A stretch of 64,000 bases of DNA from Theodoxus fluviatilis (taxonomy: Eukaryota > Mollusca > Gastropoda > Cycloneritida > Neritidae): the NCBI GenBank assembly GCA_034096865.1, contig JAWQFJ010005888.1, positions 1 to 64,000 of the forward strand, read 5' to 3'. Positions 2,406 to 49,648 of this stretch are shown here, in pieces. The translations under genes were made by a program, and so were the position numbers. The notes beneath the pieces are model-generated. The model saw only the letters and a program-made list of their open reading frames with translations, searched no databases and was not told the DNA's origin. Every line of letters starts with the position of its first letter. Within the stretch, counting starts at the first letter, position 1.

Positions 2406-3530
2406 TATCTATGCCATATGCGAGATACCCATGTATAGTGAGTGCTGTATCTGTGCCATGTGCGAGATACCCATGTATAGTGAGTGCTGTATCTATGCCA
2501 TGTGCGAGATACACATGTATAGTGAGTGCTGTATCTATGCCATGTGCGAGATACACATGTATAGTGAGTGCTGTATCTATGCCATGTGCGAGATACACCT
2601 GTATAGTGAGTGCTGTATCTATGCCATGTGCGAGATACACCTGTATAGTGAGTGCTGTATCTATGCCATGTGCGAGATACCCATGTATAGTGAGTGCTGT
2701 ATCTATGCCATGTGCGAGATACACATGTATAGTGAGTGCTGTATCTATGCCATGTGCGAGATACACCTGTATAGTGAGTGTTGTATCTGTGCCATGTGCG
2801 AGATACACCTGTATAGTGAGTGCTGTATCTATGCCATGTGCGAGATACACCTGTACAGTGAGTACTGTATCTGTGCCATGTGCGAGATACACCTGTATAG
2901 TGAGTGCTGTATCTATGCCATGTGCGAGATACACCTGTATAGTGAGTGTTGTATCTATGCCATATGCGAGATACACATGTATAGTGAGTACTGTATCTAT
3001 GCCATGTGCGAGATACACATGTATAGTGAGTGCTGTATCTATGCCATGAGCGAGATACACCTGTATAGTGAGTGCTGTATCTGTGCCATGTGCGAGATAC
3101 ACCTGTATAGTGAGTGTTGTATCTATGCCATGTGTGAGATACACCTGTATAGTGAGTGCTGTATCTACGCCATGTGTGAGACACACATGTACAGTGAGTG
3201 TTGTATCTATGCCATGTGCGAGATACACCTGTATAGTGAGTGTTGTATCTATGCCATGTGCGAGATACACCTGTATAGTGAGTGCTGTATCTGTGCCATG
3301 TGCGAGATACACCTGTATAGTGAGTGTTGTATCTATGCCATGTGCGAGATACACCTGTATAGTGAGTGCTGTATCTATGCCATGTGCGAGATACACATGT
3401 ACAGTGAGTGTTGTATTTGTGCCATGTGCGAGATACACCTGTATAGTGAGTGCTGTATCTACGCCATGTGTGAGACACACATGTACAGTGAGTGTTGTAT
3501 CTGGGCCCATGTGCGAGATACACCTGTATC
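2406..3530. repeat. 42-bp minisatellite, array 2 (about 27 units)
   Basis: Same unit as array 1. The first unit after the transposon carries the same rare variants (GCCATATGCG, then ATACCCATG) as the first unit after copy 1. That points to duplication of element and flank together. Confidence 0.9.
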
Positions 3531-4740
3531 AGGGCAGTGCCTGTACCTATGCCATGGTGGAGATTCACACAGTAACCGTGAGGCTGTATTGTTGACAGCT
3601 GGTGTTTTTGTCCCCCACATCACCCCCGTGGACCTCCCCTCATGCCACGCGTTCTTTTTTTTAGTCACATCACTGATCATTATGTACCACACCGACCGAA
3701 GTGCGTGTACCTATGCACATGTGTGAGACTCACCACATTGTACAGTGAGGGTTGTATTTTGTGCCACAATGTGCGAGAGACACCTGTATAGGAGTGTTGT
3801 TTATCTATGGCCACTATGCCGAGATTACACATGATTATAGTGAGAAGTACCGGTATCTCTGCCATGTAGCCGAGAGATACACATGTATCAGTTGAAGCTG
3901 CTGTATCTATGCCATGAGCGAGATACCACCTGTATGAGTGAGATTTGCTTTGTATCTTTTGTGCCTATCGTTTTGCGTAGGGATACACCTGAAGATAGTG
4001 AGTGTTTGTATCTATGCCATGTTCCGTGGAGATTATTTTTACACACCTTGTATTACGTGCAGTGCGGAGTACATACAGCCAGTGTGTTGAGAGGACACAC
4101 ATGTAAAGTGGAGTTGTTGTATCTAGCAATTTTCTATTTTAATGTTTTGCGAGATAAACCTGTAAGTGAGGACTGTTTTGTATCTATTTCATATTTTCAG
4201 TAGCAGATAAACCTGTAAGTGAATGTGTGGATCTGTGACATTTTGTGCCCCCACCCGACCCGCCCACACTTAACAGATGTAACAAAGTGACCAACTTTCT
4301 TAACCATTTCCTTTATTTCCTTTTTTACCTTTTTAACTCCACCCCGCATGTTTTGTGTATTTGTGCCATGTGGCGAGATTTACACCGTGTATTTCGTCCA
4401 GATTGTGTGTGTATTTGTTGCCAGCGTTGCGAGGATACACAGTACAGTGTAGGGTTGTAGGTGTGGTTACAGGGGCGAGAGACACAGGTTTATAGTGAGT
4501 GATGTAGTCTGTGGAAATGGGCGATTGGATAAACTATGTACAGGGGGGAGTGTGGAGCTATTGCCATAGGTGCCGAGAAACAAATGTACAGGGAGCGTGG
4601 GTATCTATGCGCTGTGTGAGGAGAAACATGTTGTTGTACATGTGAAGTGTTGTATTTTGTTTTAGCACATGTGCGAGATTACACCTCGTAATAGTGATGG
4701 GCTGGCTACTCAGCCAATAGGCGAGAAACCTGATATGGTT
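3531..4740. repeat. Decayed edge of the 42-bp minisatellite
   Basis: Recognisable fragments (GTATCTATGCCATG, GCGAGATACACCTG, TAGTGAGTG) recur at roughly the same spacing with growing indels and substitutions up to about 4740. Unrelated insertions occur near 3595-3700 and 4230-4350. ORFs here are leftovers of the open unit and are not genes. Confidence 0.75.
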
Positions 4741-7700
4741 GATTCGTGTTAACCGTCTTACCTGTGACGTTACTGTTCATTTCAGTTACTCAGTGTGCGT
4801 CATGTGATGACTGCAGATCATTTGTGACTGTGCATGAGATAACAAGGTGGAAGTACCTAAACGACAAAATGAAATATTTCAATCACAATGTTATTTATTT
4901 ATTCATGCATATTCCAGAAAAAACAGCATGTTTGTAAAAAAATAATCTACTTGTTTTTTACAGTGATCAATGTAAATATCAGGAAAACATGCATGACATA
5001 GTGCACCGATAATTTTTGCATTTTCTGGAAAACTGCTTTTTGTACAGCCTTGCTACTCATGCAGTCATAGCTCTTGACAATATGACAAGCAGTTCCATCT
5101 CCTTCCCGTCTACTAGTTTGCAAGGCAGATCACCACATGTGCGTGGTCCCTTGAGATGGCTGACGGACACCTGTGGCCCCAGCCCAGGTGTGGCTGCCCC
5201 CACCCCCCACCCCCACCCCCACCCTCCACCCCCCCACCCCCACCCCCAAGTAGTGTCAGGTATAATCAGGGCTGTGAAACACCTTTAAGGACCTGTCTTA
5301 TCGAATGCTTTCCCTCTGAAGACCGTCAGCTGTCCCGCTTCCCAGGAAGTTTTATTCTCTTCAGGCTGTGAAATTGCAAAAAGTATCTCTAGTGTTCGCT
5401 ACTGACAAACATCGTTTACTTGCAGCATGATGCATGGAGTAGGTCGTCTACCTTGCTTGTGTGTTCTTTTCCATTCAATTCAGCAAAAGCTGCGTTAAAG
5501 TGACTCTTTAGATGAGGAAAACTAGAGACTGGTACACTACTTACATGTGTGTACTGTCTACCTGCACTGGGTACTTTTCTGCCCTTGGTCCTGAAGCTTT
5601 CCCCCAAGGAAGCACAGGCTTGCAGGTCTCTATGCCTACTTGTGGGTCTGAGTGCAATGAGCAAGTCTTTAGATGCACAGAGCTCGCTGTAACTGTGAAA
5701 ACCTAGTGCCAGGAAGAAAAGAAGGTGAGAATTGTGCAAAGTAATTAATCCCCCCCTTCCCCTTCCCCTTCCTCAAACCACCACCACCATCCCTACTCCG
5801 CAGCAATAGTGTTGAAGAGGTTGTTAGGTCATGGAGAAATTCATCAAAAACTTGGAGATAATTGTTTACACACACAAAAAGGAGGGCTCCACTATTAGTT
5901 TTGATTTGAAAGAGTCATGGTGTTGCATTATTGAGTGAATGAGTGGAGTGTTTGCGGCGAGCTAACTCTGAGCTGTTTGCATTGCAGCTTGCAGAAGTTT
6001 CTTTCAGACAACTGTTGCAGTGATGGCATATGAACACTTCTTTTTGAGACATGCGGTTGATTTGTCATGAATCTGAATGACCAGACCAGGTCATTCTATG
6101 CGTCTTATCACTCGCACGTAATCTTGGGATATATATAAATAAATATATACATGTATCAATTCCTTTTGTTGTGACTATGACCATTTATATGCAGGGGTTG
6201 TCATGTAATATCCATTGTTCACATTTGACTGGGTTGCATTGTACATGTATATGGTTGAAACATCTTGCGGTTTATTTCTGTCTTCGTTGTCTGTGATGCC
6301 ATCATGATCAGGGGTTGCAGGGCTGTGGGAAATGTATGTCATTGAGGCACCTCGGATCACAATAAACTTGCATCACCATTTCTCTATTGACTTGCAGTTT
6401 CAATAGAAAGCTGTTTAAGCTTTCCAGTAGTGATTGGTGATGGTGAAGAAATGCATGTGTGCGCTTGTGTGAGTGTACATATGTGTTCGTATGGGTGGGT
6501 GCACTCACGCATGTGTGTGTGTGTGTTTATATGTGTGTGTATATATACACACACATTTTCGTGGGGGGGAGGGGGAGGCCCAGAGCACTAGGCACAATTT
6601 TGAGAGGAAGAAGAAGGCATTCATTTTCTTGAATGATCCAAAAAATTTGCATTTTTTCATTGCCTCGGAAACGGTGTTCCAGAAAACAGTTGCTATGTAA
6701 GAGAAAGGCGGATGGCCATGTCTCTCCAGATTCATGCAGAGAATCTTAAGTATTGATTATCTCAGTATTCTAGGAGGAAAATATGCCTGCTTCTAAATTG
6801 CAACTTTTCTTTTGTTTTTGTTTTTTTCTAAAGGAACCTAAAAGGTTCCTGTGTACTTTCATGGTCAGCATGATCTTTGACAGTCATTTCATTACCTTGT
6901 CAACTTGGTATTGTAGAGTGGTGCAACTAGAATGTGGAGTTATTTAGCCACAGTTGGCTTTTGCTTGAAACTTAAGGGGCACATGGCATAGACAAAAGGG
7001 GTATTATAAAAACATTCACCGCTCAGCAAATATCAACGCAATGTTTATGAAATTTGCAGACAATACAAACGCACTACAAGAAATATTGAGACTAATTTTT
7101 ATTTTTTCAGATGGAGTTATTAATGAATTATGACACATTCACTGAAAAATATGTACAGTATACCTATTTTTGCTCTTCTACCAAACCACAATGATCAACC
7201 TCTAGATCTGCAATGGTTGTAAACAAAGAAGGACTATATTACACAATAAGACATAACAGTTTCTGTAACTTTTGCAAATGTTTCTAGTGGAAAGCAGCAT
7301 TATCATCTGGGGAAAAACAACACTCCTGGCAAGACATGATTAAATTATTATTAAAAATAATCAAAGTTACAGTTTCCTGACTGGTTCTATTGTATTCTAC
7401 ATCCATTTATATGCAACACACAAAAAATTAATGCCATCTGTTTTCCAAATCACTTTAATTTAGGGGCAAAAAAGGTCAGAAATTTATTATAAATTTGACT
7501 TCAAAGTTTGAGGAAAAACTACCCTTGCAAAACAAATTAACTACAAATGATCAAAATTTTAACATTACTTTTTAATTATAGAGTCCATTACTTTATTTTT
7601 TTAAATTATATTTTATTTCAGTAAGTCAAAAAGGGGAGTATATTACATGTAGCAGGGAAACACATAAACATGGCTATGAGTCTTTGGTGCAAATACTGTG

Positions 7701-28129: not shown

Positions 28130-29016
28130 GACTCACATGCGAAGCAAAAGTGAGTCTATGTACTGAGCCGTGTCGTCCGTCCGTCCGGGCGTCCGTCCGT
28201 CCGTCCGGGCGTCCGTCCGTCCGGGCGTCCGTCCGTCCGGGCGTCCGTAAAAACCTTAAACGTTGGATTTTTCTCGGAGACTATTAAGTCTATCAACACC
28301 AAATGTGGCATGATGGTGTATGATTACAAGGCCTCAAAAAACATACATAGTGACTTGACCTTGCTTCAAGGTCAAGGTCACAGGAGCCATAAATGTGGTC
28401 TCAAAAACAGTCATTTTTCACATTTTCCCAATTTTCTCCCACGTTATTGAGAATGGCGACCTTAGCTACAAGTGGTATATAGGTCAAAGCAAGCCCTATC
28501 TTTTGATACCAGTTTGGTTGACCTTGCTTCAAGGTCAAGGTCACAGGAGCTCTTCAAAGTTGGATTGTATACATATTTTGAAGTGACCTTGACCCTGAAC
28601 TATGGAAGATAACTGCTTCAAACTTAATAATTATGTGGGGCACATGTTATACTTTCATCATGATACACATTTGGTCACATATCATCAAGGTCAAGGTCAC
28701 TTTGACCCTTATGAAATGTGACCAAAATGGGGTAGTGAACCACTAAAAGTGACTATATCTCATGGTAGAAAGTGCCAATAAGCACCATTGTGCTTCCTAT
28801 GTCTTGAATTAACAGCTTTGTGTTGCATGACCTTGGATGACCTTGACCTTGGGTCAAGGTCACATGTATTTTGTTAGGAAAAATGTGTAAAGCATTTCTA
28901 TGATGTCATTGGTAGGTTTAGTTGTTTGACCTTGACCTTGAAGTTCACCTGAAGGTCAAGGTCATATAAAGGTCAAGGTCAAGCATGTGAGTCGTATGGG
29001 CTTTGCCCTTCTTGTT
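28130..29016 (-). repeat. TCAAGGTCA-rich dispersed repeat, copy 2 (inverted)
   Basis: Reverse orientation of copy 1, nearly full length. The GGACG block is longer (28170-28250). TCAAGGTCA motifs are at the same internal positions. Directly downstream of the transposase-like gene and possibly in its 3' UTR. Confidence 0.88.
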
Positions 29017-29325
29017 CTTTCTTCAATTTTGCCACAACATGCTTGTTTGCTTTTTAAAGGATACTTGTGGATTCAAATAAAGTAATCACAATGGCATGTC
29101 AAGCAGTTTTAATGTTTTGTTTATGGAAGGTGGGTGAAAGTGTGAATGTGGTGTCTTTGTTACGCGGCAAATACAATTTTATACACTGGTAACATTTCCT
29201 TGCAATTGAACATAGGTTCATTCAGAAAGGTTTTCTACACTGCTATGTCTTTATTTCACATGATGATGCTGGTTAACATCAACTTCCTAAGAAGTGTGTC
29301 ATTTGATGACACTTTTACAACACAA
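29017..29325. other. Spacer between two inverted repeats, with AATAAA
   Basis: 309 bp of unique sequence. A plus-strand AATAAA at 29076-29081 could end transcripts of the gene upstream. Confidence 0.5.
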
Positions 29326-30187
29326 AACAAGAAGGGCAATGCCCATACGACTCACATGCTTGACCTTGACCTTTACATGACATTGACCTTCAGGTGACCC
29401 TCAAGGTCAAACAACTAAACCTACCAATGACATCATACACAAAGAAATGCTCTACACGTTTTTCCTACCAAAATACATGTGACCTTGACCCAAGGTCAAG
29501 GTCATCCAAGGTCATGCAACACAAAGCTGTCAATTCAAGACATAGGAAGCACAATGGTGCTTATTGGCACTTTCTACCATGAGATATAGTCACTTTTAGT
29601 GGTTCACTACCCCATTTTGGTCACATTTCATAAGGGTCAAAGTGACCTTGACCTTGATGATATGTGACCAAATGTGTCTCATGATGAAAGCATAACATGT
29701 GCCCCACATAATTATTAAGTTTGAAACAGTTATCTTCCATAGTTCAGGGTCAAGGTCACTTCAAAATATGTATACAATCCAACTCTGAAGAGCTCCTGTG
29801 ACCTTGACCTTGAAGCAAGGTCAACCAAACTGGTATCAATAGATAGGGCTTGCTTTGACCTATATACCACTTGTAGCTGAGGTCGCCATTCTCAATAACG
29901 TGGGAGAAAATTGGGAAAATGTGAAAAATGACTGTTTTTGAGACCACATTTATGGCTCCTGTGACCTTGACCTTGAAGCAAGGTCAAGTCACTATGTATG
30001 TTTTTTGAGGCCTTGTCATCATACACCATCATGCCACATTTGGTGTTGATAGACTTAATAGTCTCCGAGAAAAATCCAACGTTTAAGTTTTTTACGGACG
30101 GACGGACGGACGGACGGACGGACGCCCGCCCGGACGGACGACACGGCTCAGTACATAGACTCACTTTTGCTTCGCATGTGAGTCAAA
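29326..30187 (+). repeat. TCAAGGTCA-rich dispersed repeat, copy 3
   Basis: Same orientation as copy 1 and inverted relative to copy 2. Start AACAAGAAGGGCAATGCCC, end GCATGTGAGTC. One internal CAAGGT unit is missing near 29404 compared with copy 1, and the GGACGGACG block is short (30094-30137). Confidence 0.88.
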
Positions 30188-38264: not shown

Positions 38265-38549
38265 TGTGGCAGGAATGCCGAGAAATGCCCCGACCCCGAG
38301 GGAGGGCACGCGAATTGGCCCAGGGCTCGGTAAGAGCCAGATAAAAGAGCTAAAAGTACTAGAAAGGCTTCTCACCTTAGTCGCTCGACGCTGTATCTTC
38401 AGTAATGCACCCCGGTCACCGGTGATGCTGCCTTTTATACGTGCTCACCCAACCAATCCAATTGGCTCTTACGGGTGAGCACTAATCGGTGGTTTCGACA
38501 GGTCGATCGCCCATTCCAAGGGCGGTAACTAGGAGCGCCTCCTGCCACA
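38265..38549 (-). repeat. 3' LTR of the gypsy element
   Basis: 285 bp, ends TGTGGCAGG and CCTGCCACA. Identical to the other LTR by eye over its full length, implying recent insertion. Confidence 0.95.
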
Positions 38550-38568
38550 CTCTTCCCCGTTTTTTCTT
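38550..38568 (-). promoter_or_regulatory. Polypurine tract (plus-strand primer)
   Basis: Minus strand AAGAAAAAACGGGGAAGAG abuts the 3' LTR directly, as required for plus-strand DNA priming. Confidence 0.85.
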
Positions 38569-38922
38569 GGAGCCCCCTGGACATCTCCCCTTGCCGGGGG
38601 GTGGGGACGCCGCTCGTTTCCTACACAGTCGACCTGCCCTTTCCAGAGGTGGCAAAAGGTAGAAAAGAGCCAAGAGACAAAAATAACACAGGGCAATTAA
38701 ACAGGTTGAGAGCAGTAAGAATGGCCACTTGGAGAACTACCTCGAAGCAGCAAGGACAGACTCACAACCAAACAAACTAAAGTTTTTCATGACAGGAAAG
38801 ATTGATGCTCGTAGCTTACTGAGCCCAGGAAACCTAAATTTTGATGTGATGGCATAGGCCTAGCCCAGCTTCATGCTCATCACATACCTATGCTGCTTCG
38901 TACTTCCCCCCCCCCCCCCCGC
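38569..38922 (-). other. 3' untranslated segment of the gypsy element
   Basis: About 350 bp between ORF3 and the polypurine tract; includes a C run at 38907-38921 (G run on the transcribed strand). Confidence 0.6.
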
Positions 38923-41367
38923 CTACAGCTGGAAGAACTGGCGGGCATTCTCGATAGAGAGCCGCAGGATGTCAACCCGCCTTGCCCCGCGGATTTCAGA
39001 CACCCTACTCGAGATCTCATCCAAGAGGTAGGGGGTAGAGAATCCCTTCTTCAGACGGATCGGGCAGTCCGTCTCCAGCAGCAGTCTCGCTGAAGGGATA
39101 GCTCGGATGCCTTCTTCCTGGCCCGCGGTACAGCGCCTCAGTACAGAGATCCCCACACTAAAGTAGGTGTTGGGGAAAATCTGCTGCCATCGATGCACCT
39201 CCTCCGGGGAGCCCTGGAAGAAGTGCACCTGCACACGCTGCTGCGCGGGTTCGAGTTCTTCCGAGAGGACCTTCAGAAGACGTGACAGTACGTCTCCCGA
39301 AGGCGCCCCTCGGCAGTGGACCTGCAGAGGACGGGTGGAAATGAGGTCCCGGAGTCCTGACAGCAGGAATCTCAGAGCCACCTCCTGCTCCTCCAAGGTA
39401 GCAGATTTGGTCTCATCCAGCCCGAACTCTCCAAAGGCCACCACCTTGGGTAGTCCCGACAGCTCCCTGAGCCGTTGTACCACTACCTCTGGTTCCGCGA
39501 GCACCTCCTTGGCATACTTTGGGTGTAAGCCAAGGGCGATACCGAGCCGCGAATCCCTCATGATGTCCCGACGCCAGCCGCGCTGGTGCCTGAGCATATG
39601 TTGGTGCGTGCTCGGATCGCAAAAGGACGCCACCGCATACTCGATGTCCACCTGTGGACTACCCCGTAGCCCGTTGGCCCTCCGGGCCAGGGACAACACC
39701 GTCCTCAGGTCGCCCCCCCGGGGGGCTTCGTGCACCCACTTCCGTGCCTCCCGGCCCAGCCGGTCCAGGTGGAAGTGGGCATCCACCCCCATCAACCTAC
39801 TCAAGCGCGTCCGGGACGGCGGGCACGGCTTAGGTTCTGGGGTGGGGGTGGGTCGTGGCGCCAATGCCACCGCCTGGGCATAGCTCAGGCTCGCACCACA
39901 CTCACCTTTGAGCGGCCCTTCGGATACACCTCCACCGCCTGCCACCATGTTGCCGGAGCGCACCCGTAGCCGGAAATGGTCGGCTCTCGTCTGCAGGGCG
40001 GGAGGCTCCAAGCTTCCCCGCGCACCGACCTGCGGTGCCTCCCCGGTCGCGGCTGGTCTACTCCTGCAAGATGACAGACGGGGGGGGCTCACACCCATTA
40101 AGGAGTCAGGCACACCGGTCACAAGGGTTCGAACCCCCGTGTTTCCAACTTCTCGACAGAGAACCGATCGCGAAGACCTTCCGACGGCCTGATTCCCTAC
40201 CTGCTCACTGCCCAACAGCGCGTCCTCCAGCCTAGCTGCGTCGCTTCCCGAGGGAGAGAGGGCGTCTATCCCCGGTGGCAGGGAGATGAGTGGCCCCACT
40301 TCCACCTCCATCGAGACCTCAGCGGGAATCACGAGGTCGGCAGTTGCGAGCTGTACCGCGGCCGCCGGGCTGTCAGTGACGACCGACGTGGCGCTCGCGC
40401 CGGTGGCACTAGCCATTACGGCGGGGTCGCCAGCAGCAGGAGTGGTTCTGGCCGGTGTGGTCTGGGCCAACCGTTCTCTGGCAGCCACCAGAACTCCTCG
40501 CTCCGCCGGGGTGAGCTGCCCCCACACCGCGTTGGAGAGGAACCCCTGGACAGGGATATACCGGAGTATCTCCTCCGGCTTGCGGTCGCGCGGTAGGGTC
40601 CCCACGCTGGTCAGCCTCGGTCGCCGCGGGGCTGGCGGGTCCGCCGGGCGCTGCTCCTGACAGAGTCGGCGCTGCTCTTGACGGGATCGGCGCTGCTCTC
40701 GACGGGGTCGACGCCCCGAGCGCCCCTGGTACTGGGTGCCCGCTTCCAAGGCGCCCTGATTCCCCCATTGAGCTGCTCGACCTCTTGGGGCAGTCCGCCC
40801 CCGGCCGCGGTCGTGACCGTCAGGTCGAGGGGGAGGGGATGGGGACGCTCCACGCTGTCGTGCACCCCCGCCCGCAGGTGTTGACGGTCGGCGAGATCGC
40901 CGTCCGGCGTTCCGCAGATGGAGACCCAGCGCTCCGGTCCCCGCCATTGGGGCAAACTCGCGGAACTCCTGCTGTGCCCGACGCCCCGCCAACTGCAGGA
41001 GGGCAAACAACACCCGCCAGTGCAGCAGCAGTCCCGCGGTGTTCAGGGGGGTCAGGCTCAGGGGTCCATCCGGCCTTGGATGCCCCCAGTGGTTCAGTAG
41101 GCTCTCGCAGATGAGGGCCTCCCTCCTGCTGATTGGCGTTCCCCTGGGGATGGAACGCTCCACCAGAGTCGCCAGCCGGAACAGCGACCCGTCCGGGACG
41201 TTGAGGTGCCCGGCCACCATCATCACAGCTCCCAGCATCTCCGGGAGGGATCTCCCAAAGAACTGGGGCGGGAAATGCTCTTGAAGGGCATGCTCCCGCA
41301 GGTTCCCGACCTGTCTTCCCCCACACAGGTCGCATGTCGCTCCACCTTCATACGATTGCCGGGACAT
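38923..41367 (-). CDS. ORF3: C2H2-like finger plus TatD-family nuclease (814 aa)
   Basis: The ATG at 41367 follows the integrase/PHD stop (41383-41385) by 15 bases and is in the same frame. Residues 12-31 form a C-x2-C-x10-H-x4-H finger. A low-complexity Arg/Pro/Ala-rich middle follows (about 150-520). Residues 526-814 are a TatD-type metal-dependent hydrolase: MGVDAHFHLDRLG (H531, H533), LGIALGLHP, AFGEFGLDE (E647), LQVHCRG (H684), VQVHFFQG (H715) and LLLETDCP (D767). These are all the metal ligands of the family. TatD enzymes are Mg2+-dependent 3'-5' exonucleases or endonucleases acting on DNA or RNA. The closest animal relative by motif feel is TATDN2. The frame is fully open, unlike pol. 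Role in the element (cDNA trimming, RNA removal, host-defence escape) is unknown. Confidence 0.88.
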   Translation of the reverse strand: MSRQSYEGGATCDLCGGRQVGNLREHALQEHFPPQFFGRSLPEMLGAVMMVAGHLNVPDGSLFRLATLVERSIPRGTPISRREALICESLLNHWGHPRPDGPLSLTPLNTAGLLLHWRVLFALLQLAGRRAQQEFREFAPMAGTGALGLHLRNAGRRSRRPSTPAGGGARQRGASPSPPPRPDGHDRGRGRTAPRGRAAQWGNQGALEAGTQYQGRSGRRPRREQRRSRQEQRRLCQEQRPADPPAPRRPRLTSVGTLPRDRKPEEILRYIPVQGFLSNAVWGQLTPAERGVLVAARERLAQTTPARTTPAAGDPAVMASATGASATSVVTDSPAAAVQLATADLVIPAEVSMEVEVGPLISLPPGIDALSPSGSDAARLEDALLGSEQVGNQAVGRSSRSVLCREVGNTGVRTLVTGVPDSLMGVSPPRLSSCRSRPAATGEAPQVGARGSLEPPALQTRADHFRLRVRSGNMVAGGGGVSEGPLKGECGASLSYAQAVALAPRPTPTPEPKPCPPSRTRLSRLMGVDAHFHLDRLGREARKWVHEAPRGGDLRTVLSLARRANGLRGSPQVDIEYAVASFCDPSTHQHMLRHQRGWRRDIMRDSRLGIALGLHPKYAKEVLAEPEVVVQRLRELSGLPKVVAFGEFGLDETKSATLEEQEVALRFLLSGLRDLISTRPLQVHCRGAPSGDVLSRLLKVLSEELEPAQQRVQVHFFQGSPEEVHRWQQIFPNTYFSVGISVLRRCTAGQEEGIRAIPSARLLLETDCPIRLKKGFSTPYLLDEISSRVSEIRGARRVDILRLSIENARQFFQL

Positions 41368-41382
41368 CTGCAAAGACAACTT

Positions 41383-41850
41383 TTACTGACGACCCCGGCG
41401 CTGCTCACAGTCGGGGCAAATAAAAGACGCTGCGGCCTGGGCTTCCTCAGGGGTGATTCCTACACAACGGGGGTGGAACCATTCATCGCAAGAGTCACAC
41501 GCCACCATCAGCTGCCCATCATCGGGCCCTCGACAGCTGCAATACAATGGTGTATCCGACAGCTCCGCGGACTCAGCAGGGAACTCATCTGCAAGAAAAG
41601 CAAATGACGTCGATCCCTCCGAGGCCGCCTCCTCTGGCGATTGGTCCCCCATCGGTGTCACCCGATCCTTCCCCGACAGCTGTCTCCGCAACCTCCGGAT
41701 CCACAGAGGTAAGGGATCATCCAGGCACCTTCGCAGGCGGTCACAGTGAACCACCCACCTCCTTCTGGAAGAGGCAATAGTGCAAGGTGCTGAGAAAAGG
41801 ATTTCCGTGACCGCATACGGTCCCCTCCACGATGGAGCTAACTTCCTGCA
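41383..41850 (-). CDS. Integrase C-terminal tail with PHD finger
   Basis: After an in-frame TAA (41851-41853) the reading continues: RKLAPSWRGPYAVTEIL is the usual small beta domain after a gypsy integrase core. Then WVVHCDRLRRC, an acidic linker and a C4HC3 PHD finger at about 41408-41546 (LYCSCRGPDDG, VACDSCDEWFHPRCVG, FICPDC). The aromatic DEWFHP core resembles fingers that read histone H3 tails. The last codon precedes TAA at 41383-41385. Chromodomains are the better-known targeting module at this position; a PHD finger would serve an equivalent role. Confidence 0.85.
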   Translation of the reverse strand, partial: CRKLAPSWRGPYAVTEILFSAPCTIASSRRRWVVHCDRLRRCLDDPLPLWIRRLRRQLSGKDRVTPMGDQSPEEAASEGSTSFAFLADEFPAESAELSDTPLYCSCRGPDDGQLMVACDSCDEWFHPRCVGITPEEAQAAASFICPDCEQRRGRQ

Positions 41851-42573
41851 TTATGAAATCTTCCTGGCCGAATTTGCCAGGAGGACTGCGTCACCCACCT
41901 CGAACTCGTTCGGAGCTGCGTGAAGGTCACAGTCACGCTTTTGCCGCTGCTGTCGGTCGTGCAGAGCATTACTGGCTATGGCGTGAGCTTGCTGTAGCCC
42001 CTGCCGCGTCCTTTCCACATATCCTTCTAAGGAATGTGCAGGTTCTGACACGCCCATCATCAAATGCATGGGATGCTTAACCTCACGGCCGAGCATGAGG
42101 AAGTTGGGCGTGTAGCCGGTGGAGCGGTTGACTGTTGCTCGCATCGCTCCCGCCAGCATCTGCAAATGGTCGTCCCAACCGGCCTGTCCGTCTCTCAAGG
42201 TACACCGCACCATCTGGAGGAGTGTACTATTCATCCTCTCTACCTCGGCTCCCATACTGGGCCAGAAGAAACTTCCCCTGAGCTTCTGCAAGGTCGCATC
42301 CCGTCCCCTATGACCGGACATAATGTGAGAGTGCGCCAGGGCCATCAGGGTGCGCCGTAGCTGTTGGGGCACCACCCACAGTTGCCGGGCCTTGTCCCGA
42401 CCCCTCCAGCAGTACCAGAGGTTACCACCCTGCCAGACGAGCAGGGCCCTATTGGTCCAGAGCTGCTTCACCAATGGAGACTTAGCAGCCAACTCCTCCT
42501 GTGATGGGGAATGACCAGCAGCTGTCCAGCGTCCTACAAGGCTCAAATCTACATCCTTACCTTGTTCCTTACC
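41851..42573 (-). pseudogene. Integrase with the catalytic core deleted
   Basis: The frame from about 42573 reads through a linker and the first half of the HHCC zinc domain (HSHIMSGHRGRDATLQKLRG, FFWPSMG). It then jumps straight to VERMNSTLLQM, which normally follows the third catalytic residue, and on to GYTPNFLMLGRE. The Cys pair of the zinc domain and both catalytic aspartates are missing, about 150 residues by comparison with typical integrases. The junction lies near 42236-42250. The deletion is in frame. The protein cannot be catalytic. It stops at TAA 41851-41853. Confidence 0.88.
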
Positions 42574-43347
42574 TTACTGCTGGGGATCCATTACCTGGAC
42601 CCAGTTGCTGGACCCCTCATCACTCACCATCCGGATGGTTGGTACCGCCGAGGCCGACACCGCCAATGGGAGAACATCATCCACTTCCTCCTCAAAAAGG
42701 TTCCCACTGGTAGTGCTTCCTCGTGCAATAGGGGCACCCACCACATGGAACACGGGAGAGATCCGCACCAGCCTGGTAGTACCCGCAGAGGTCCAATTCC
42801 TCGGACAAGCGTGACAGGTAGTCAGCGTTGAGTGGATGTTTCCCTTCCGATGTACAACTCGCATGTCGTACTGGGCGAGCTCTTCAATCCACCGAGCGAG
42901 TTGACCCTCGATGTTCTTGAACCTGAGAAGCCACGCCAAACTGTTGTGGTCGGTCCTGACGAGGAAGGGCCGCCCGAGCAGATAATGCCTAAACTGCCGC
43001 GTGAAGGCAATGATCGCTAGGAGCTCCTTCCGAGTGGTGCAGTACTTCCTCTGCGCTGGAGACAGACTTCGGCTGGCAAAAGCAATGGCCCTTTCTTTCT
43101 CGTCTTGCACCTGCGACAGCGAGGCACCAATAGCCGAGTCAGAGGCATCCGTGTCCAGGATAAACATTCCCTCTCTCTGGGGTAGTGCTAGGACTTGGGC
43201 TGACGATACCGCTCTTTTCAGCTGTCGGAATGCTTCTGTGTGCTCATCCGCCCAGGCGAACGGTGCCTTCCCGGTCAACTGGTAGAGGGGTTGTGCTAAC
43301 TCTGCCAAGTGCGGGATATGCTCGCGGTGGTAGTTGACGAAGCCCAA
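42574..43347 (-). CDS. Pol: RNase H segment
   Basis: The segment starts GFVNYHREHIPHLAEL (RT connection) and contains RNase H motifs FILDTDASDSAIGASL, the TTRKELLAI glutamate and RTDHNSLAWLL. It is out of frame with the RT ORF by a one-base loss in TTTTGGG near 43352. A compensated pair of indels (about 42836 and 42715) garbles the linker ADYLSRLSEELDLCGYY. It ends at TAA 42574-42576, after which the same frame continues into the integrase. So it is a broken part of one polyprotein. Confidence 0.88.
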   Translation of the reverse strand: MGFVNYHREHIPHLAELAQPLYQLTGKAPFAWADEHTEAFRQLKRAVSSAQVLALPQREGMFILDTDASDSAIGASLSQVQDEKERAIAFASRSLSPAQRKYCTTRKELLAIIAFTRQFRHYLLGRPFLVRTDHNSLAWLLRFKNIEGQLARWIEELAQYDMRVVHRKGNIHSTLTTCHACPRNWTSAGTTRLVRISPVFHVVGAPIARGSTTSGNLFEEEVDDVLPLAVSASAVPTIRMVSDEGSSNWVQVMDPQQ

Positions 43348-45022
43348 AAGCTTTCAACGTCCCTCGTGCACTTGGGTTGAGGCCACTTTTCCGTGGTCAC
43401 TATGCTGTCGGGTTCAATCTCGACAGAGTTGCCAGACACGATCTTCCCCAGGAACTTGACCTTCGTGTTGAAGAGGGTGCACTTCTTTGGCTTCAGCTTC
43501 AGGTTGTGCTCTCGGAATCTGTCGAAGACTTCCTTCAAGTTCCGGAGGTGTTCTTCAAAATCTTGCCCAAGCACCAAAACGTCGTCGAGGAATGCCAGAA
43601 CCGTCTTCCAGGTCAAACCTCTCAGGACCAGGTTCATGGCCCTCTGAAAGGTGCTCGGAGCATTACACAGCCCGAAACTCATTCGCCGGTGTTCGTACAG
43701 GCCGAAGCGCGTGATGAACGCGGTCTTCTCCCTGTCCCGTGGGTGTATCTCAATCTGCCAGTACCCCGATGCCATGTCCAGAGTGCTCATGAAATGATTC
43801 CCGGCTAGAGCATCCAGACAATCCGAGATCAGTGGCAGAGGGAACGCATCCTTCCTCGTTACCTCATTCAGTCGCCGGTAATCCAAGCACCACCGCACCC
43901 CGCCGTCTTTCTTCCTGACCAAGACCGGGGATGCGGCCCACGGCGAGTTCGAGGGTTGGATGACCCCCGCATCCAACATGGACTGAAGATGCTTTTCCTC
44001 CTCCGACTCAAATCCTCGAGGGCACCTACGCAGCCGATCCTTGATGGGGGGAACGTTCTCGGTCAGGATCTCGTGCTGCACCGCGTCAAAGCAACCTAGG
44101 TCCAATTCATGGGCGGCGAAGACATCGGCGTACGTCGTCAGCAACTGCCTCAGTCCTAGCCTCTGGCCTTCCGTCAGGTCCTTCCCGGAGCGTTCAAGCA
44201 AGTCCTTCACGTGAGACGGGACTTCCTGCCCCGTGTCCGAAGGAGTCGCGTACCTGACCCTCCCCCCTGTATCATCCGTGTCCAGCACTGTGACTCTAAC
44301 AGCAGTGCCCACCATCGCACCCAGGGACAGGGCCAGGGTGTGATCGGTATCGTTGAAAAGGTACACCGAGACCATGCCATCCGCGGCTACGTCATGCAGC
44401 GTAGCTGGCATCAGACCCAAGGTCATCCCGGGTATTGAGGATATCAACCAGAGACCCGCCTCCGAGGCGGAGAATACAAGTTGACAAGCCTTCACCGTCC
44501 TTGGCGGCACTCTAACTGGAGTCGCTGTGGACACCACGCGGAGTGTCACGCCCTCCTCGCCCCTCAGCATCCTGGCCGGAATCACCTCTTCCCCCAGACG
44601 AAGGGTCAGCTGTCCAAGGTTTATGACGGCTCCAACTGCTCCCAGAAAATCCATGCCCAAGAGCATATCCTCGGGGATGCATGCTACGTAGACTGGCATC
44701 CGATACCGGCCCTTCCCAATGGTAATGGAGACGTCCTTCACCACCGCCGCCTCCACCGGCTGACCCGCCACGCCGTGCAGCCTGGCCGGCTCCAATGTCC
44801 TGGACGAAAGCCATTTTGCCACGGTGTGGGAGCCAACTATGGTGACCTGGGCCGCGGTGTCCACCACCGCCATAAGAGGGCAGTCTTCGATCAGAGCTTC
44901 GACCACCAAACTCAGACGATCGTCGACCCGGCGAATCCTGGGCGTTTCTCCTCCAGCAACTGGTACCGCGAGCTGCTCGACAGGGGACGGTTCGCACTCG
45001 CTACTCAAACCCTCCCGTCCGC
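43296..45022 (-). CDS. Pol: aspartic protease and reverse transcriptase
   Basis: Read by minus-1 frameshift from gag. The protease motif MAVVDTAAQVTIVG near the start has DTA in place of the usual DTG/DSG, followed by LLGMDFLGAVGAVI, the second conserved retropepsin segment. The RT has PSNSPWAASPVLVRKKDGG, RWCLDYRRLNEVT, DMASGYWQIEI, MSFGLCNAPSTFQRAMN and the catalytic FLDDVLVLG, then KCTLFNTKVKFLGKIVSG. The conventional LPQG block appears as FGLCNAP, which is normal for Ty3/gypsy. The frame breaks near 43352 within CTRDVESF. Confidence 0.93.
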
Positions 45023-47509
45023 GTTTAAATTAAACCGGACGCGAGTGGGTGGAGTTGGAGACGGCGACCTGGACCCGTCCCTCCCCGGCTTCTTCGGACA
45101 TTCCCGGGCCATATGCCCGACTTCCTGACAATTGTAGCAAGTCATCCCCCCTGGTGGGGACCTTGGTCGTGCGTATGGGCGTGGGGGAACTCCGCTCCCC
45201 GACTCCGGCACTGGCAGCCGAGTTTCGAAGAGGGTCTTCAGCTCCTTTATGAGCTTATAAAGGTCCTTGCCGCCCGCCTCCTCCTCCTCTTCAGGACTAG
45301 GATCCGCTGGCTGTCGCGTAAGCCGCTGAGCCGGCTTCTGCGCCACTATGGCCTGTCGCACCTGCTGTGGGGCTGTTTCCTCCTCGGTCGATCCGCCTGA
45401 GGCCTCCAGCCGCCGTACCCTGGCGTGTTGACTCCACATGGAGGTGTGTTCCACGAAGGCTTGGACTGCGTCCAGCGCCTCCCCCAACGTCTTGTACCGG
45501 AAATTGATGCAGGCGGTGGCAGCCGCGCTATTCTCCAGGCCATTCAGGAAGCAGCGCACCATCTCTTCCTCCACGAACTTGGGGCTGACGTCGCGGGGGA
45601 ATGCTTCGATAGCCATCCCGCGGACTCGGTCTGCCCACTCCCGCGGGGATTCCTTCTTGCTCTGCATCATGTTGTTGAAATGCGCCCTTTGGGTGTCGGG
45701 GGTAACTGACTGGCCGAATCTGGTGGCCAGAGCCTCTACCACCAGGGACAGATCCTCCTGCTGGCTGCGAGGGAGCTGTTCGTAATAATGCAGGGCGTCC
45801 CCTTCCAGGTGCATCGCGAGGTATAGCGCAGCCTCCTTGTCCGTCCAGCCCCGAACCAGCATATGGCGCCGAAACTGGCCATGGAAATCCCGCCACGGCT
45901 CCCTTCCCGTGAAAGGCCGTAACTTGGGGACATCCCTTCTTCCTCCTGCTGGGACATGAATGGAGAAATCCTGAGCCGCCGACAAGCGCAGATCCTGAAG
46001 CGAAGGGGTCCTCGACTCCCGGAAAGTGGGCTGCCCCCACCTGCTGCCCGCCGAGTCATCCCACGTCCCGCGGGTCTGCGAGGCCCCGTAGCTCCCCATG
46101 CCTGGGGCTGCAGCCGGCCGGAGACCCGGGGGCGACGGGCCAGTCGAGGGGAAGGCTCCCCCGAGGTGGTCCCACTGCTCCCGTTGCCTTTCCCGTCCCT
46201 CGCGCCTCTGTGCTCCGTCGGCCTCCTCCGCTAACCCCCCACTCGCGACGTACCCAGTACGCCCGTCGTAGGCCGACTGCGAGCGAGCACTCGTGCGGTC
46301 TCGGACCGCTCCCTCCTGCTCCGCCGCCCGTAGCTGCTGACGGAAAGGACGTAGGGTCTCCTCCACCGTCTGCACGGTTTTGAGCATCGCCTGCTGTACA
46401 GTAGCGGCCTGCTCATCCATGTGCCTCCGGAGGGAGCCACACGTTCTTTCCAAGTGCTGGACCTGGTCAATCAGGGTCTGCGAATGAGCGATGTGCTCCT
46501 CATGCAGCTGCCTGATCCGCCGCTCCGTGTACGCAAAGGACTCCTCTCTACTCTGGTCCAGATCCTGCCTCAACTGGTCGAGACGCGGGCGGAGGTCCTC
46601 AGTATCCTGCTGCGCGCGCTCTCCCGGCCACGCGGGCCTGGGGGTCGGCGCCGTTACGTCCCCCACTGGAATCATGGACAGGGACCGGCGACTCCTGCGG
46701 GCGTCCAGGTCCTCCTGAGCATCGGCGGACGCCCTTCCACCACCCATACCCGTGAGTGATGATGCGGGCCTCCCAGTAGGTAGGGAGGGAAAGTGGGAAC
46801 TTCCCGTCTCCCTCAGCGTTGAGCTCGCCCGCGGCTGCGGCAGCCTCGTGTCGCCGTCGAGGTCAAAGAAGCCGGATGATGCGAGGCGTTGTTGCGGACG
46901 GGGCTCTCCCAGGTCCACCCTGTCTGCCTCCGTTATCCGTTCGGCTTCCCCTGCACACTCCCGCTCCGACGAGTCGCTGTCCGTCCCCTGTGTCCGGGTC
47001 CCGGGGCCGCCGGAACTCTGCCAGCGGGACGTTATACGATCCTCCGTGGGGACGTGCCAATCCTTCCGGGGCTCCCCCTGGGGGCCATCGCCGCTCAGCG
47101 AGGTGGTCCCCACCCCTGGTGATTCCAGGGGGGAGCCTCCCGGTGCTTGGTTGGCGATCTCAGCAAGAGTGCACCGGGCGTCCTGGGCCGAGTACACCGG
47201 CTCCTTGAGTTCCTGTGCTGAGAGTGAGGTGTAGGTCATCACCCCTCCGTCCGTTATGCTGCAGCCAACAGGACCGTCGATGGAGCAGCGGCCTTGCCAT
47301 TGTCGGATGAACCAGCCATAATCATCCTTGTCAGCTTTACTGACACTCGTCGCGGCGAAGAAGTCCGGCACGAGCAGCTTGGGTCGGGCGAGCCAGGCGG
47401 CCAGCATGCCGGCCTTCCGTACCGTGGTGTTGGTGGACGCCATAATCTCCGCCACCGTAAACTTGGTGGGGGTGGGGTCCACGACCCCCGAGTCCCGCGA
47501 CTCGGCCAT
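45005..47509 (-). CDS. Gag polyprotein (834 aa)
   Basis: I chose ATG 47509 (TTTGGGATGGC, good context), giving MAESRDSGVVDPTPTKFTVA. Order: a variable Ser/Arg/Pro-rich region; a coiled coil at about residues 310-400 (LRQDLDQSREESFAYTERRI and HLERTCGSLRRHMDEQ); a capsid domain (PKLRPFTGREPWRDFHGQF, ALYLAMHLEGDALHYYEQL, FLNGLENSAAATACINF); and a CCHC knuckle CYNCQEVGHMAREC near the C-terminus. It stops with TGA at 45005-45007. The same frame is open upstream to 48172 and would add a hydrophobic, Cys-rich stretch of 221 residues; I regard that as leader. Confidence 0.92.
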   Translation of the reverse strand: MAESRDSGVVDPTPTKFTVAEIMASTNTTVRKAGMLAAWLARPKLLVPDFFAATSVSKADKDDYGWFIRQWQGRCSIDGPVGCSITDGGVMTYTSLSAQELKEPVYSAQDARCTLAEIANQAPGGSPLESPGVGTTSLSGDGPQGEPRKDWHVPTEDRITSRWQSSGGPGTRTQGTDSDSSERECAGEAERITEADRVDLGEPRPQQRLASSGFFDLDGDTRLPQPRASSTLRETGSSHFPSLPTGRPASSLTGMGGGRASADAQEDLDARRSRRSLSMIPVGDVTAPTPRPAWPGERAQQDTEDLRPRLDQLRQDLDQSREESFAYTERRIRQLHEEHIAHSQTLIDQVQHLERTCGSLRRHMDEQAATVQQAMLKTVQTVEETLRPFRQQLRAAEQEGAVRDRTSARSQSAYDGRTGYVASGGLAEEADGAQRREGRERQREQWDHLGGAFPSTGPSPPGLRPAAAPGMGSYGASQTRGTWDDSAGSRWGQPTFRESRTPSLQDLRLSAAQDFSIHVPAGGRRDVPKLRPFTGREPWRDFHGQFRRHMLVRGWTDKEAALYLAMHLEGDALHYYEQLPRSQQEDLSLVVEALATRFGQSVTPDTQRAHFNNMMQSKKESPREWADRVRGMAIEAFPRDVSPKFVEEEMVRCFLNGLENSAAATACINFRYKTLGEALDAVQAFVEHTSMWSQHARVRRLEASGGSTEEETAPQQVRQAIVAQKPAQRLTRQPADPSPEEEEEAGGKDLYKLIKELKTLFETRLPVPESGSGVPPRPYARPRSPPGGMTCYNCQEVGHMARECPKKPGRDGSRSPSPTPPTRVRFNLNADGRV
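45023..45029 (-). promoter_or_regulatory. Minus-1 ribosomal frameshift site UUUAAAC
   Basis: The transcript reads U UUA AAC in the gag frame (gag codons AAT TTA AAC), the canonical slippery heptamer. The pol frame is closed by TAA immediately upstream and open immediately downstream, and gag stops six codons later. GGACGG (starting 2 nt after the heptamer) can pair with CCGTCC about 24 nt further on, a possible stimulatory stem, though the spacing is shorter than usual. Confidence 0.85.
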
Positions 47510-49346
47510 CCCAAATGACCAAAGCGCGATGACTGCTGCCAATCTCTCTCCCGGAAACGATTCTAGTAGAGGTCTCTCTGTTGCTGAAAGTAGAAACACA
47601 CCTAACCCTACACCACCACACCCCTTCCCATGCGAAAAAACGAAGGGGGGACAGCGTGCAAGGCCGATGCAACATAAAGAACGACAACAAAAAGAAAACA
47701 CCACAACAGCTGCCGCTATTATGGAAGGGGAATACGTTTCTGCTGAGGACGCAACACCGGAAAATTGTGCACAAAACAAGGGAGCAATACTGTCACAGTA
47801 TCCGCTGTCAAGGGAAACACTGAGAAGCTTCGACAGGATGCAGCAACAGCAAAGTGCAACAGCAAAGTACACAAAGGGTGAACACAAGGGTTGAAAGCAA
47901 TGGCAGACAGTATCGCATAACGAACACAGCAAAAAGCGCCACTGCAAAGTGCAAAACGCATGGGAATCAACCAGAGCAAATAGACAAACAATCGCAAAAA
48001 TGTAAAGCTGCAAGGAAAATGCAAATGTAGGGCAGAAGCAGGTTGCAGTGAACAACAAGCAAGTGCAACAAGTATGGCAGGTAGACACCAAACAGATCAA
48101 AGCAACAGCATATCCCCCCCTACTACAGAAGAATCTCGTTATCCGTCCTCGAAAATCCCCACTCCCATCCAAGGGAGCTAACCAGGAGCACTTCCCCGAC
48201 CCTCAGATTAACTCCCCCTGGAAGCATCTGAGCGAACTCAGGGGCAGAGTGTCCCGTATCTCGAAAAAACGTGGCGAAAAATCATTCTCTCATCCATCGT
48301 TTGATGGGCATGTCATTCTTGTCGAGAGAATGAAGAAAAAACTTAGTTCTTATTACTGTGAAAATCGTAGGCAGAAGTGCTGCAGTCGGGTCGCCGCGTG
48401 CAAGGCATCATGCATCGTGAAATAAATAAACAAAAAACATCGGTCTCTTTCGTACCAGCCCCCCTGAACACTCTGCAGGGCATTGCGCCGTCCAATAGCG
48501 CGAAAATAGGCCTGCCACAGCCTAACGATGCATGGCCGCGGGGGCGTAATTCCCGTGCCGTTTGAACACGAGTTCACGCCTCTTGCACATCTCCGAGCGC
48601 AGTTCGAGCACTTCCCGCCCACTGCTTTTCAAAAATCGCTAGCAAGGAAAGGGATAGACACAGACCATGGGGAAAGTCAATGAGAGTCCACTCGAGGCAA
48701 AAAAACCAAAAGCCGACTTACTTGTGTGCGTAAAAAACCGAAAGGCCAGCGCTTAGCATGGGACGAGGGCTTACAGCCAACAAATAGCAAAGTCGACTCA
48801 CAATGACACCAAGCGAAAAAACAGAAAAGTAGCCTCATGGACCAAAAAAAAGCAAAGACGACTTACAGGTGCCAAATGCGCAAAAAACAAGAAGGCCCAT
48901 GCCTTACGTCGGACGAGGCCTCTTCTAAGTAGACTCCCATAAACTACCTCTCACTCGTGAAAAAGAAGAGTTTAACAAACAAAAAATAGCAAAATGGAGC
49001 GAGGCCAAACCAAGCTCAAAGCAAACCGATAGCGAGAGGCAAAATGACAGATAGCAAAACACAAAAAAATGCTGATGTATTGCCCAGCGGCTTAGCCTCC
49101 TTGAGCGAATATCATCAGGGTGCATGAAAAAAAAACGAAACAGAAAAGACAGAACGAGTCCCATCACCCAGGATGAACTCAGAAAAATGAAACCTAACTG
49201 ACCAGCGTCATGAGCGCCCGAGCACAGGCAAGCTTCGCGTGCCAAGCGCAATCATATCGCGCCAAGCCGTCCATTAACGGCAGATGGCGCACAGCGCATT
49301 CTGCATGCGCTAAACCGTCCATTAGCACAGACGGCATGAGGTCGGC
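47510..49346 (-). other. Leader of the gypsy element
   Basis: A 1.85-kb non-coding leader. It contains two diverged copies of a segment of about 145 bp (48705-48775 and 48850-48925 share GACTTAC...GACGAGG). Several GTAAGT/GTGAGT motifs appear on the transcribed strand (near 48715, 48795, 48855), which could be splice donors. Confidence 0.55.
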
Positions 49347-49361
49347 ACCACTTCTGACACC
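49347..49361 (-). promoter_or_regulatory. Primer binding site, tRNA-Leu type
   Basis: TGGTGTCAGAAGTGG begins two bases inside the 5' LTR end. It is complementary to the 3' end of animal tRNA-Leu (CCACTTCTGACACCA). Confidence 0.85.
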
Positions 49362-49363
49362 AA

Positions 49364-49648
49364 TGTGGCAGGAATGCCGAGAAATGCCCCGACCCCGAGG
49401 GAGGGCACGCGAATTGGCCCAGGGCTCGGTAAGAGCCAGATAAAAGAGCTAAAAGTACTAGAAAGGCTTCTCACCTTAGTCGCTCGACGCTGTATCTTCA
49501 GTAATGCACCCCGGTCACCGGTGATGCTGCCTTTTATACGTGCTCACCCAACCAATCCAATTGGCTCTTACGGGTGAGCACTAATCGGTGGTTTCGACAG
49601 GTCGATCGCCCATTCCAAGGGCGGTAACTAGGAGCGCCTCCTGCCACA
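49364..49648 (-). repeat. 5' LTR with promoter of the gypsy element
   Basis: It carries a clear TATA box on the minus strand (GTATAAAAGG, 49539-49530) with CCAAT-like GCCAATTGG about 30 bp before it. The initiator should lie about 30 bp downstream, near 49500. Followed outside by GAAC. Confidence 0.92.

What the first reader, a model, noticed from the sequence alone, without database searches (positions are those of the whole stretch)
38923..41367. LTR retrotransposon encodes a TatD-family nuclease as a third ORF
Downstream of pol lies an intact 814-codon ORF with an N-terminal C2H2-like finger and a full TatD domain retaining HxH, Glu, two His and the final Asp. TatD enzymes are metal-dependent nucleases; I know of no established role for one in the Ty3/gypsy cycle. 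It may trim cDNA ends, remove RNA, open target DNA or counter a host defence. It is the best-preserved ORF of the element although pol is damaged, which hints at selection or an activity useful in trans. Similarity to animal TATDN2 raises the question whether TATDN2-like genes came from, or gave rise to, such elements.
Basis: partly seen in the sequence, partly recalled or inferred. Interest (0 to 1): 0.88.

Follow-up and report, generated by a model that had tools for sequence, protein, structure and literature searches.

The report
Retrotransposon with conserved TatD nuclease gene
A family of jumping elements in this animal genome carries a third gene for a TatD-type nuclease that selection has kept intact, which suggests that these elements use a DNA- or RNA-cutting enzyme not previously linked to their life cycle.

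Summary
On the minus strand lies an 11.4-kb Ty3/gypsy element (38265-49648) with identical 285-bp LTRs. Its third ORF (38923-41367, 814 aa) has a C2H2-like finger and a complete TatD domain with all metal ligands.

It is not a one-off capture. Of 33 close pol copies in this genome, 16 have TatD downstream on the same strand, 6 run off their contig and 11 lack a Pfam hit; no contig of 43 distant gypsy pol matches has one. Ligands are intact in 18 of 20 copies examined. TatD dN/dS is 0.08-0.15 between the window and its four nearest copies, against 0.49-0.83 in the linker of three. Two diverged families show pol-PHD-ORF3. A third has ORF3 and a PHD trace. Gastropod and bivalve proteins join the clade, apart from cellular TatDs.

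Against strict need in cis, some copies lost most of TatD but keep pol. Likeliest: a trans-acting TatD nuclease, perhaps from spliced RNA, processing replication intermediates; the step is unknown. Closest precedent: DEDDy-exonuclease ORF3 of rotifer elements (PMC5408684).

The parts
38265..49648 (-). Ty3/gypsy LTR retrotransposon, 11,384 bp, defective pol
   Evidence: LTR pair, Pfam gag/PR/RT/RNase H/IN zinc/PHD/TatD, Ty3 RT best PDB hit
49364..49648 (-). 5' LTR, 285 bp, ends TGTGGCAGG...CCTGCCACA
   Evidence: 285/285 identical to the 3' LTR
38265..38549 (-). 3' LTR, 285 bp
   Evidence: 41 LTR matches on 35 contigs of the own genome
49348..49362 (-). primer-binding site TGGTGTCAGAAGTGG (tRNA-Leu type by recall, not tested)
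   Evidence: sequence next to the 5' LTR
45005..48172 (-). gag open frame with a CCHC zinc knuckle (the listed start is a mechanical TTG; true start not determined)
45023..45029 (-). UUUAAAC in the gag frame at the gag-pol overlap, candidate -1 frameshift site
   Evidence: no significant RNA structure downstream
43296..45008 (-). pol: protease and reverse transcriptase frame
   Evidence: Pfam RVT_1 1e-31, Asp_protease_2 4e-8
42574..43347 (-). pol: RNase H frame (frame change relative to RT; ends at an in-frame stop)
   Evidence: Pfam RT_RNaseH_2 1.8e-34; frames
41851..42546 (-). pol: integrase zinc domain joined to the integrase C-terminal part; catalytic core deleted at about 42235-42245; in-frame stop downstream
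   Evidence: Integrase_H2C2 3.2e-13 and no rve match; junction shared with L015
41383..41754 (-). pol C-terminus: PHD finger, H3K4me3-reader type by similarity
   Evidence: Pfam PHD 3.8e-11; best PDB BPTF, PHF2, SPP1, CXXC1
41368..41379 (-). TTGTCTTTGCAG just before the ORF3 ATG, 3' splice-site-like
   Evidence: CAG abuts the ORF3 ATG in 14 of 16 copies printed; no transcript data
38923..41367 (-). ORF3, 814 aa: N-terminal C2H2-like finger and helical block, low-complexity linker, C-terminal TatD domain
38926..39798 (-). TatD domain of ORF3 (last 291 residues)
   Evidence: Pfam PF01026, E=2.7e-27 for ORF3 as a whole
38550..38568 (-). polypurine tract before the 3' LTR
   Evidence: read by eye

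Best explanation
ORF3 is a captured TatD-type metal-dependent nuclease that has become a regular third gene of one Ty3/gypsy lineage, next to a pol that ends in a PHD finger. Shown by sequence: position, linkage to pol, retained ligands, purifying selection on the finger block and the TatD domain, and one clade apart from cellular TatDs. Inferred: it is translated from its own spliced RNA (a CAG acceptor-like site abuts the ATG). The N-terminal finger tethers it to nucleic acid or to the particle. It acts in trans as a 3'-5' exonuclease or endonuclease on single-stranded DNA, RNA or hybrid ends made during reverse transcription or integration. Rough odds: conserved, selected TatD gene of the element, about 0.95; active nuclease, about 0.85; role in the element's own nucleic-acid processing rather than against the host, about 0.5.
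For: Pfam and ligands. Linkage: 16 of 33 close pol matches against 0 of 43 distant ones (Fisher p=1e-7, or 5e-9 leaving out the 6 that run off their contig; copies are related, so p is only indicative). Two intact pol frames followed directly by ORF3 frames. TatD dN/dS of the window with L014, L016, L017, L015: 0.08, 0.08, 0.10, 0.15; linker 0.83, 0.49, 0.78 with L016, L017, L015. Ligands intact in 18 of 20 genome copies and in 22 of 23 ORF3-type rows that cover all six. ORF3-type rows on one side of a 100/99 branch. CAG abuts the ATG in 14 of 16 copies. E. coli TatD is a 3'-5' exonuclease on ssDNA and RNA, and human TATDN1, TATDN2 and TATDN3 have nuclease activities (PMC12709183, passages).
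Against: A subfamily with pol frames kept has lost most of TatD (C3905, C15025, C16192, C15483), and two further close copies keep the ORF3 N-terminus without any TatD match (C13250, C4671), so TatD is not strictly needed in cis. No TatD was found at 4 close pol copies, where only 1.35-1.4 kb each was looked at. Some pairs have higher TatD ratios: L022-L027 0.48, L010-L011 0.33, L014-L015 0.30; L019-L028 0.67, where L028's end is out of frame. L027 lost one His ligand. No transcript, activity or structure was obtained.
Confidence: 0.6

Rival explanations
1. Counter-defence: the nuclease destroys host small RNAs, R-loops or other host nucleic acids that silence the element. It would act in trans and spare TatD-less copies.
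For: Fits the TatD-less subfamily. Human TATDN2 has RNA exo- and endonuclease activity and resolves R-loops (PMC12709183, passages).
Against: No host target was tested. Purifying selection without a sign of positive selection on the TatD domain is not what an arms race would most simply give.
Confidence: 0.25
2. Target-site model: the PHD finger at the end of pol reads H3K4me3 at promoters, and the TatD protein clears RNA (R-loops) or processes ends there, so that integrase can act.
For: The PHD's best PDB matches are BPTF, PHF2, SPP1 and CXXC1. The cage-like Y, M and W are kept in families A and B and in the C-family fragment L007 (the cage assignment is recalled). PHD lies immediately upstream of ORF3 in 13 of the 20 regions fetched, families A and B, plus L007 of family C.
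Against: No insertion-site survey was made. The window insertion is not visibly at a promoter. TatD and PHD may simply have been inherited together.
Confidence: 0.12
3. Non-catalytic role: ORF3 is mainly a nucleic-acid-binding, assembly or env-replacing protein and TatD chemistry is not used.
For: The N-terminal finger block is as constrained as TatD (ratios 0.07-0.17 with the window). The TatD-less subfamily keeps the ORF3 N-terminus.
Against: All metal ligands are kept in 18 of 20 copies and in 22 of 23 full-coverage rows from several sources.
Confidence: 0.08
4. Passenger: a host or bacterial tatD captured once by this copy and carried neutrally, or an assembly artefact.
For: The window's pol is defective. 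A bacterial-type tatD contig (C10494) is in the same assembly.
Against: Linkage in many copies, low dN/dS, relatives in other sources including two molluscs, and a clade apart from C10494 and the host genes.
Confidence: 0.02

Closest known systems
Bdelloid rotifer LTR retrotransposons (Vesta, Juno) with a DEDDy-exonuclease or GDSL-esterase ORF3 (PMC5408684; abstract and passages seen)
   Same: LTR retrotransposon with an enzymatic, non-envelope third ORF. One type is a 3'-5' exonuclease, some of those ORFs carry a Zn-binding Cys-His motif, and the ORFs are closer to each other than to cellular homologues.
   Different: Different enzyme fold family (DEDDy/RNase D-like against TatD amidohydrolase-like). 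That paper saw no significant departure from neutrality within genomes, whereas here dN/dS is low. TatD occurs 0 times in its text. The recovered pol here ends in a PHD finger.
Ty3 of yeast and animal Ty3/gypsy elements
   Same: Order PR-RT-RNase H-IN. Best PDB hit of the RT is Ty3.
   Different: PHD finger at the end of pol and a TatD ORF3. The nearest gypsy lineage looked at in this genome (C712, 36% identity) shows neither within the 2.2 kb left after pol (PHD absence judged by eye).
Cellular TatD nucleases (E. coli TatD, YcfH; TATDN1 and TATDN3)
   Same: Full TatD domain with the HxH, E, H, H, D ligands.
   Different: The ORF3-type rows lie on the other side of a 100/99 branch. They carry an N-terminal finger and a long linker, and are encoded in a retrotransposon.
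TATDN2 of vertebrates
   Same: TatD domain after a long N-terminal region (recalled).
   Different: No special relationship was shown. TATDN2 itself was not available for the tree. Two host genes that I call TATDN2-like by recall group with cellular TatDs.

Membership tests
Ty3/gypsy LTR retrotransposon | LTR pair with TG..CA ends and a short target duplication | tested here: met
   285/285 identical LTRs; GTTC duplication read by eye
Ty3/gypsy LTR retrotransposon | pol order PR-RT-RNase H-IN and Ty3-like RT | tested here: met
   uninterrupted relatives L019 and L025
Ty3/gypsy LTR retrotransposon | complete integrase core | tested here: not met
   Missing in the window copy. Present in family B copies L019 and L025 (rve). 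This concerns the copy's integrity, not its kinship.
TatD nuclease family | full-length TatD_DNase model above its cut-off | tested here: met
   96.2 bits against 27, model positions 1-253
TatD nuclease family | HxH, Glu, His, His, Asp metal ligands | tested here: met
TatD nuclease family | TIM-barrel fold and metal-dependent nuclease activity | not testable with these tools
   The fold job had not finished at the last poll; no assay possible
TATDN2 | closer to TATDN2 than to other TatDs | tested here: inconclusive
   Host multi-exon TatD genes group with cellular TatDs; no TATDN2 sequence was held
DEDDy-exonuclease ORF3 of rotifer elements | DEDDy exonuclease domain in ORF3 | tested here: not met
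   The only Pfam hit in ORF3 above its cut-off is TatD
Elements with a spliced third ORF | subgenomic spliced RNA | not testable with these tools
   Acceptor-like CAG before the ATG in 14 of 16 copies; no RNA data and no donor scan

The most novel reading that the evidence does not exclude
A lineage of Ty3/gypsy elements present in molluscs took in a TatD nuclease once, long ago, and has used it since as a dedicated replication or integration nuclease, paired with an H3K4me3-reading pol. The elements would clear RNA or ends at promoter chromatin before integrating, and many annotated mollusc 'TatD' proteins would be retrotransposon ORF3s.
Probability: 0.2. Interest if true: 0.85.

Novelty: new variant of a known kind. 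Interest (0 to 1): 0.7.

Why it matters
Enzymatic third ORFs of LTR elements are rare, and their use is unproven. Here is one whose metal site is conserved and whose domain is under clear purifying selection across several families, so a selected function is likely. It points to a step in retrotransposition, or in escape from silencing, that a TatD nuclease can serve. It also warns that TatD or TATDN-like gene families annotated in mollusc genomes may be retrotransposon genes. The giant squid paper labels a TATDN2 gene among transposon-like ORFs inside its Hox cluster (PMC6962438, one passage); I did not test whether that is such a case.

Tried and rejected
Scans of IMG/VR with the ORF3 TatD domain, with PR-RT and with a five-sequence TatD alignment found no relatives. 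The first protein search (whole ORF3) gave one relative, because the linker dominates.

The idea of a one-off capture, of decay, and of an assembly artefact were rejected. The idea that ORF3 is the only intact ORF was rejected: gag is open too. A pseudoknot or stem downstream of the candidate frameshift site was not supported: z -1.29, -0.44 and 0.95 for three lengths. In L025 the pol frame is not the -1 frame of gag, so the slip site does not explain every copy. A TATDN2 origin is not supported. Literature: searches gave no paper on a TatD gene in an LTR element. The two papers holding both terms are off-topic as far as I saw (PMC5840709 passages; PMC5408686 listing only). Repeat databases could not be searched.

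Limits: genome searches score only the best candidates (76 of 2382 for RT, 40 of 116 for the LTR). Of the 20 regions, 18 copies entered (L018 and L024 were left out as near-copies of others, and C9148 was read from L002); L007 and the window make 20. L012/L013, L019/L020/L028 and L024/L025 are 98-99.7% alike and may be allelic or very recent copies. Copies were first picked by TatD, which biases towards intact ORF3; the RT and LTR searches are the counter-check. The structure job had not finished after polls 102, 105, 109, 113, 116, 119, 125, 128, 130, 133, 135, 136, 138, 141 and 142.

Full report
What is there. The window holds, on the minus strand, an 11,384-bp LTR retrotransposon (38265-49648). 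The LTRs (49364-49648 and 38265-38549) are identical over 285 bases, end in TG..CA, and are flanked by GTTC on both sides; a primer-binding site follows the 5' LTR and a polypurine tract precedes the 3' LTR (by eye). Gag is one open frame with a CCHC knuckle (45005-48172). PR-RT (43296-45008), RNase H (42574-43347), an integrase remnant (41851-42546) and a PHD finger (41383-41754) follow. The RT's best PDB match is Ty3 (5.9e-46). ORF3 (38923-41367, 814 aa) starts 15 bases after the pol stop, in the same frame.

State of pol. Frames change between RT and RNase H and within the RNase H-IN stretch, and in-frame stops occur before and after the integrase part. The integrase core is missing: relative to L016 about 390 bases are gone, leaving one copy of an 11-base stretch. 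L015, at another locus with target duplication GTAC, has the same junction. So a copy line without an integrase core has moved at least twice, presumably with integrase from other copies. L015 and L017 also lack PR and RT, with the same gag-to-RNase H join in both, and keep ORF3 open. Their LTR pairs match at 284 (2 mismatches, 2 gap columns) and 283 (1 mismatch) positions.

ORF3. Pfam finds TatD over the whole model, with bacterial TatD and YcfH and human TATDN1 and TATDN3 among the PDB matches of its profile. The N-terminus has a finger of the type C-x2-4-C...L-R-x-H-x4-H. Of 20 copies examined, 18 keep H, H, E, H, H, D; L027 has Leu for one His, and L007 lacks the first part. TatD dN/dS (Nei-Gojobori) between the window and L014, L016, L017 and L015 is 0.08, 0.08, 0.10 and 0.15. 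By region, with L016, L017 and L015: N-terminal 150 residues 0.09, 0.07, 0.17; linker 0.83, 0.49, 0.78; TatD 0.08, 0.10, 0.15. The chance of so few amino-acid changes under neutrality in TatD is 5e-7, 6e-8 and 9e-6 (pairs are not independent). Not every pair is as low: L022-L027 0.48, L010-L011 0.33, L014-L015 0.30, and L019-L028 0.67, where L028's end runs out of frame.

Linkage. PF01026 has 107 matches in the 965-Mb own genome. They include exon-like matches that are probably host genes, and one bacterial-looking contig (C10494). A PR-RT search scored 76 of 2382 candidates. Of the 33 with at least 51% identity, 16 have a TatD match downstream on the same strand, 1.2-5.3 kb away and mostly 3.5-4.1 kb; of the 43 with at most 47%, none has a TatD match on its contig. 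Among the other 17, six run off their contig. I looked at the remaining 11: six have the ORF3 N-terminus but no TatD or only a remnant, one (C698) has a TatD remnant, and four showed nothing in the 1.35-1.4 kb read. In family B copies L019 and L025, pol is one uninterrupted frame (1333 and 1316 aa) with protease, RT, RNase H, integrase zinc, rve core and PHD; ORF3 (784 and 768 aa) follows.

Families. In this genome ORF3 falls into A (window-like, 83-99% in TatD), B (41-43%) and C (33-36%). A and B show the full order pol-PHD-ORF3. For C only ORF3 and, in L007, a PHD trace were recovered, because contigs end or hold Ns. RT-RNase H is 77-80% identical between A and B, while PR, integrase, PHD and TatD are 41-47%, so these elements are mosaics. 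The nearest other gypsy lineage looked at, C712 (36% RT identity), has a pol ending without a PHD (by eye) and no further frame of 150 aa in the 2.2 kb left on the contig.

Wider distribution. The third protein search (TatD-domain profile) listed 50 proteins with E<=1e-10, including Dreissena polymorpha (bivalve) and Nucella lapillus (gastropod) proteins (taxonomy) and many unnamed ENA proteins on short contigs. In a 39-row tree the 29 ORF3-type rows lie on one side of a 100/99 branch, and the 10 cellular rows (two host multi-exon genes, human TATDN3, bacterial proteins) on the other. Of 23 ORF3-type rows covering all six ligand positions, 22 keep them; P0009 has Gln for the first His. P0016, P0018 and P0035 also begin with a Cys/His finger (by eye). 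Genomic context of these proteins was not available, so that they too lie next to pol is inference. Since the named relatives are molluscs, a mollusc is likely; this too is inference.

Counter-evidence. C15025, C16192 and C15483 share the same loss of most of TatD (nucleotide junction), and C3905 appears to have the same one by its frames. C3905 and C15025 keep long pol frames (1333 and 1156 aa). So TatD is dispensable in cis. This fits supply in trans, but also a weak or conditional need. The LTR search gave 41 matches on 35 contigs (116 candidates, 40 scored). Four contigs have a simple pair of LTRs: three hold ORF3 (window, C11857, C2077), and the fourth (C696) has only 859 bases between its LTRs. 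C756 has three LTR pieces within about 1 kb.

Expression. In 14 of 16 copies printed, CAG stands directly before the ORF3 ATG, after a partly pyrimidine-rich stretch, in families A and B; the exceptions are L010 (broken there) and L012 (family C). This looks like a 3' splice site, as for env-type third ORFs. I have no RNA data and did not search for a donor. UUUAAAC lies in the gag frame at the gag-pol overlap in the window and L016, and the same heptamer stands before pol in L028.

Mechanism. I commit to a trans-acting TatD nuclease that processes nucleic acid during replication or integration. Related enzymes act as 3'-5' exonucleases on ssDNA and RNA, as AP endonucleases, or on R-loops (PMC12709183, passages). 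Counter-defence is the main rival. The PHD finger's closest solved relatives are BPTF, PHF2, SPP1 and CXXC1, readers of H3K4me3 by recall, and the Y, M, W positions are kept. A link between promoter chromatin, R-loops and a TatD enzyme is therefore possible but untested.

Novelty. The kind (LTR element with an enzymatic ORF3) is known from bdelloid rotifers, with DEDDy exonuclease and GDSL esterase (PMC5408684, abstract and passages). A TatD ORF3 was not found in the held papers; repeat databases could not be searched.

Noticed in passing
window 45023-45029 (-): Candidate -1 frameshift site UUUAAAC in the gag frame; the same heptamer stands before pol in L028, but in L025 pol is in another frame. 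RNA folding downstream is not significant.
   Followed up: partly
window 41383-41754 (-): Pol ends in a PHD finger, most like BPTF and PHF2; the cage-like Y, M, W are kept in families A, B and the C fragment.
   Followed up: partly
L016, L019, L020, L025, L028 against the window pol: RT-RNase H is 77-80% identical between families A and B, while PR, integrase, PHD and TatD are only 41-47%: a mosaic.
   Followed up: no
window 42235-42245 (-) and L015 about 5276-5286: The same integrase-core deletion is shared by two insertions with different target duplications.
   Followed up: yes
L045-L047, L049, L052: Copies with the ORF3 N-terminus but TatD missing or reduced to a remnant; three share a nucleotide junction.
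   Followed up: partly
G000:C696:40676-42104: Two LTRs 98% like the window's with only 859 bases between them.
   Followed up: no
window 225-3726: Two copies of an ORF starting MPKTRRQVYDAAFKLD, each followed by an array of short tandem repeats (827-1535 and 2369-3568).
   Followed up: no
window 28202-30140: Large inverted repeat: arms of 701 bases, 97% complementary, 537 bases apart.
   Followed up: no
L001 (G000:C10494:2500-3246): Bacterial-looking tatD, 276-aa frame, E=6e-73: likely a contaminant or symbiont contig in the assembly.
   Followed up: no
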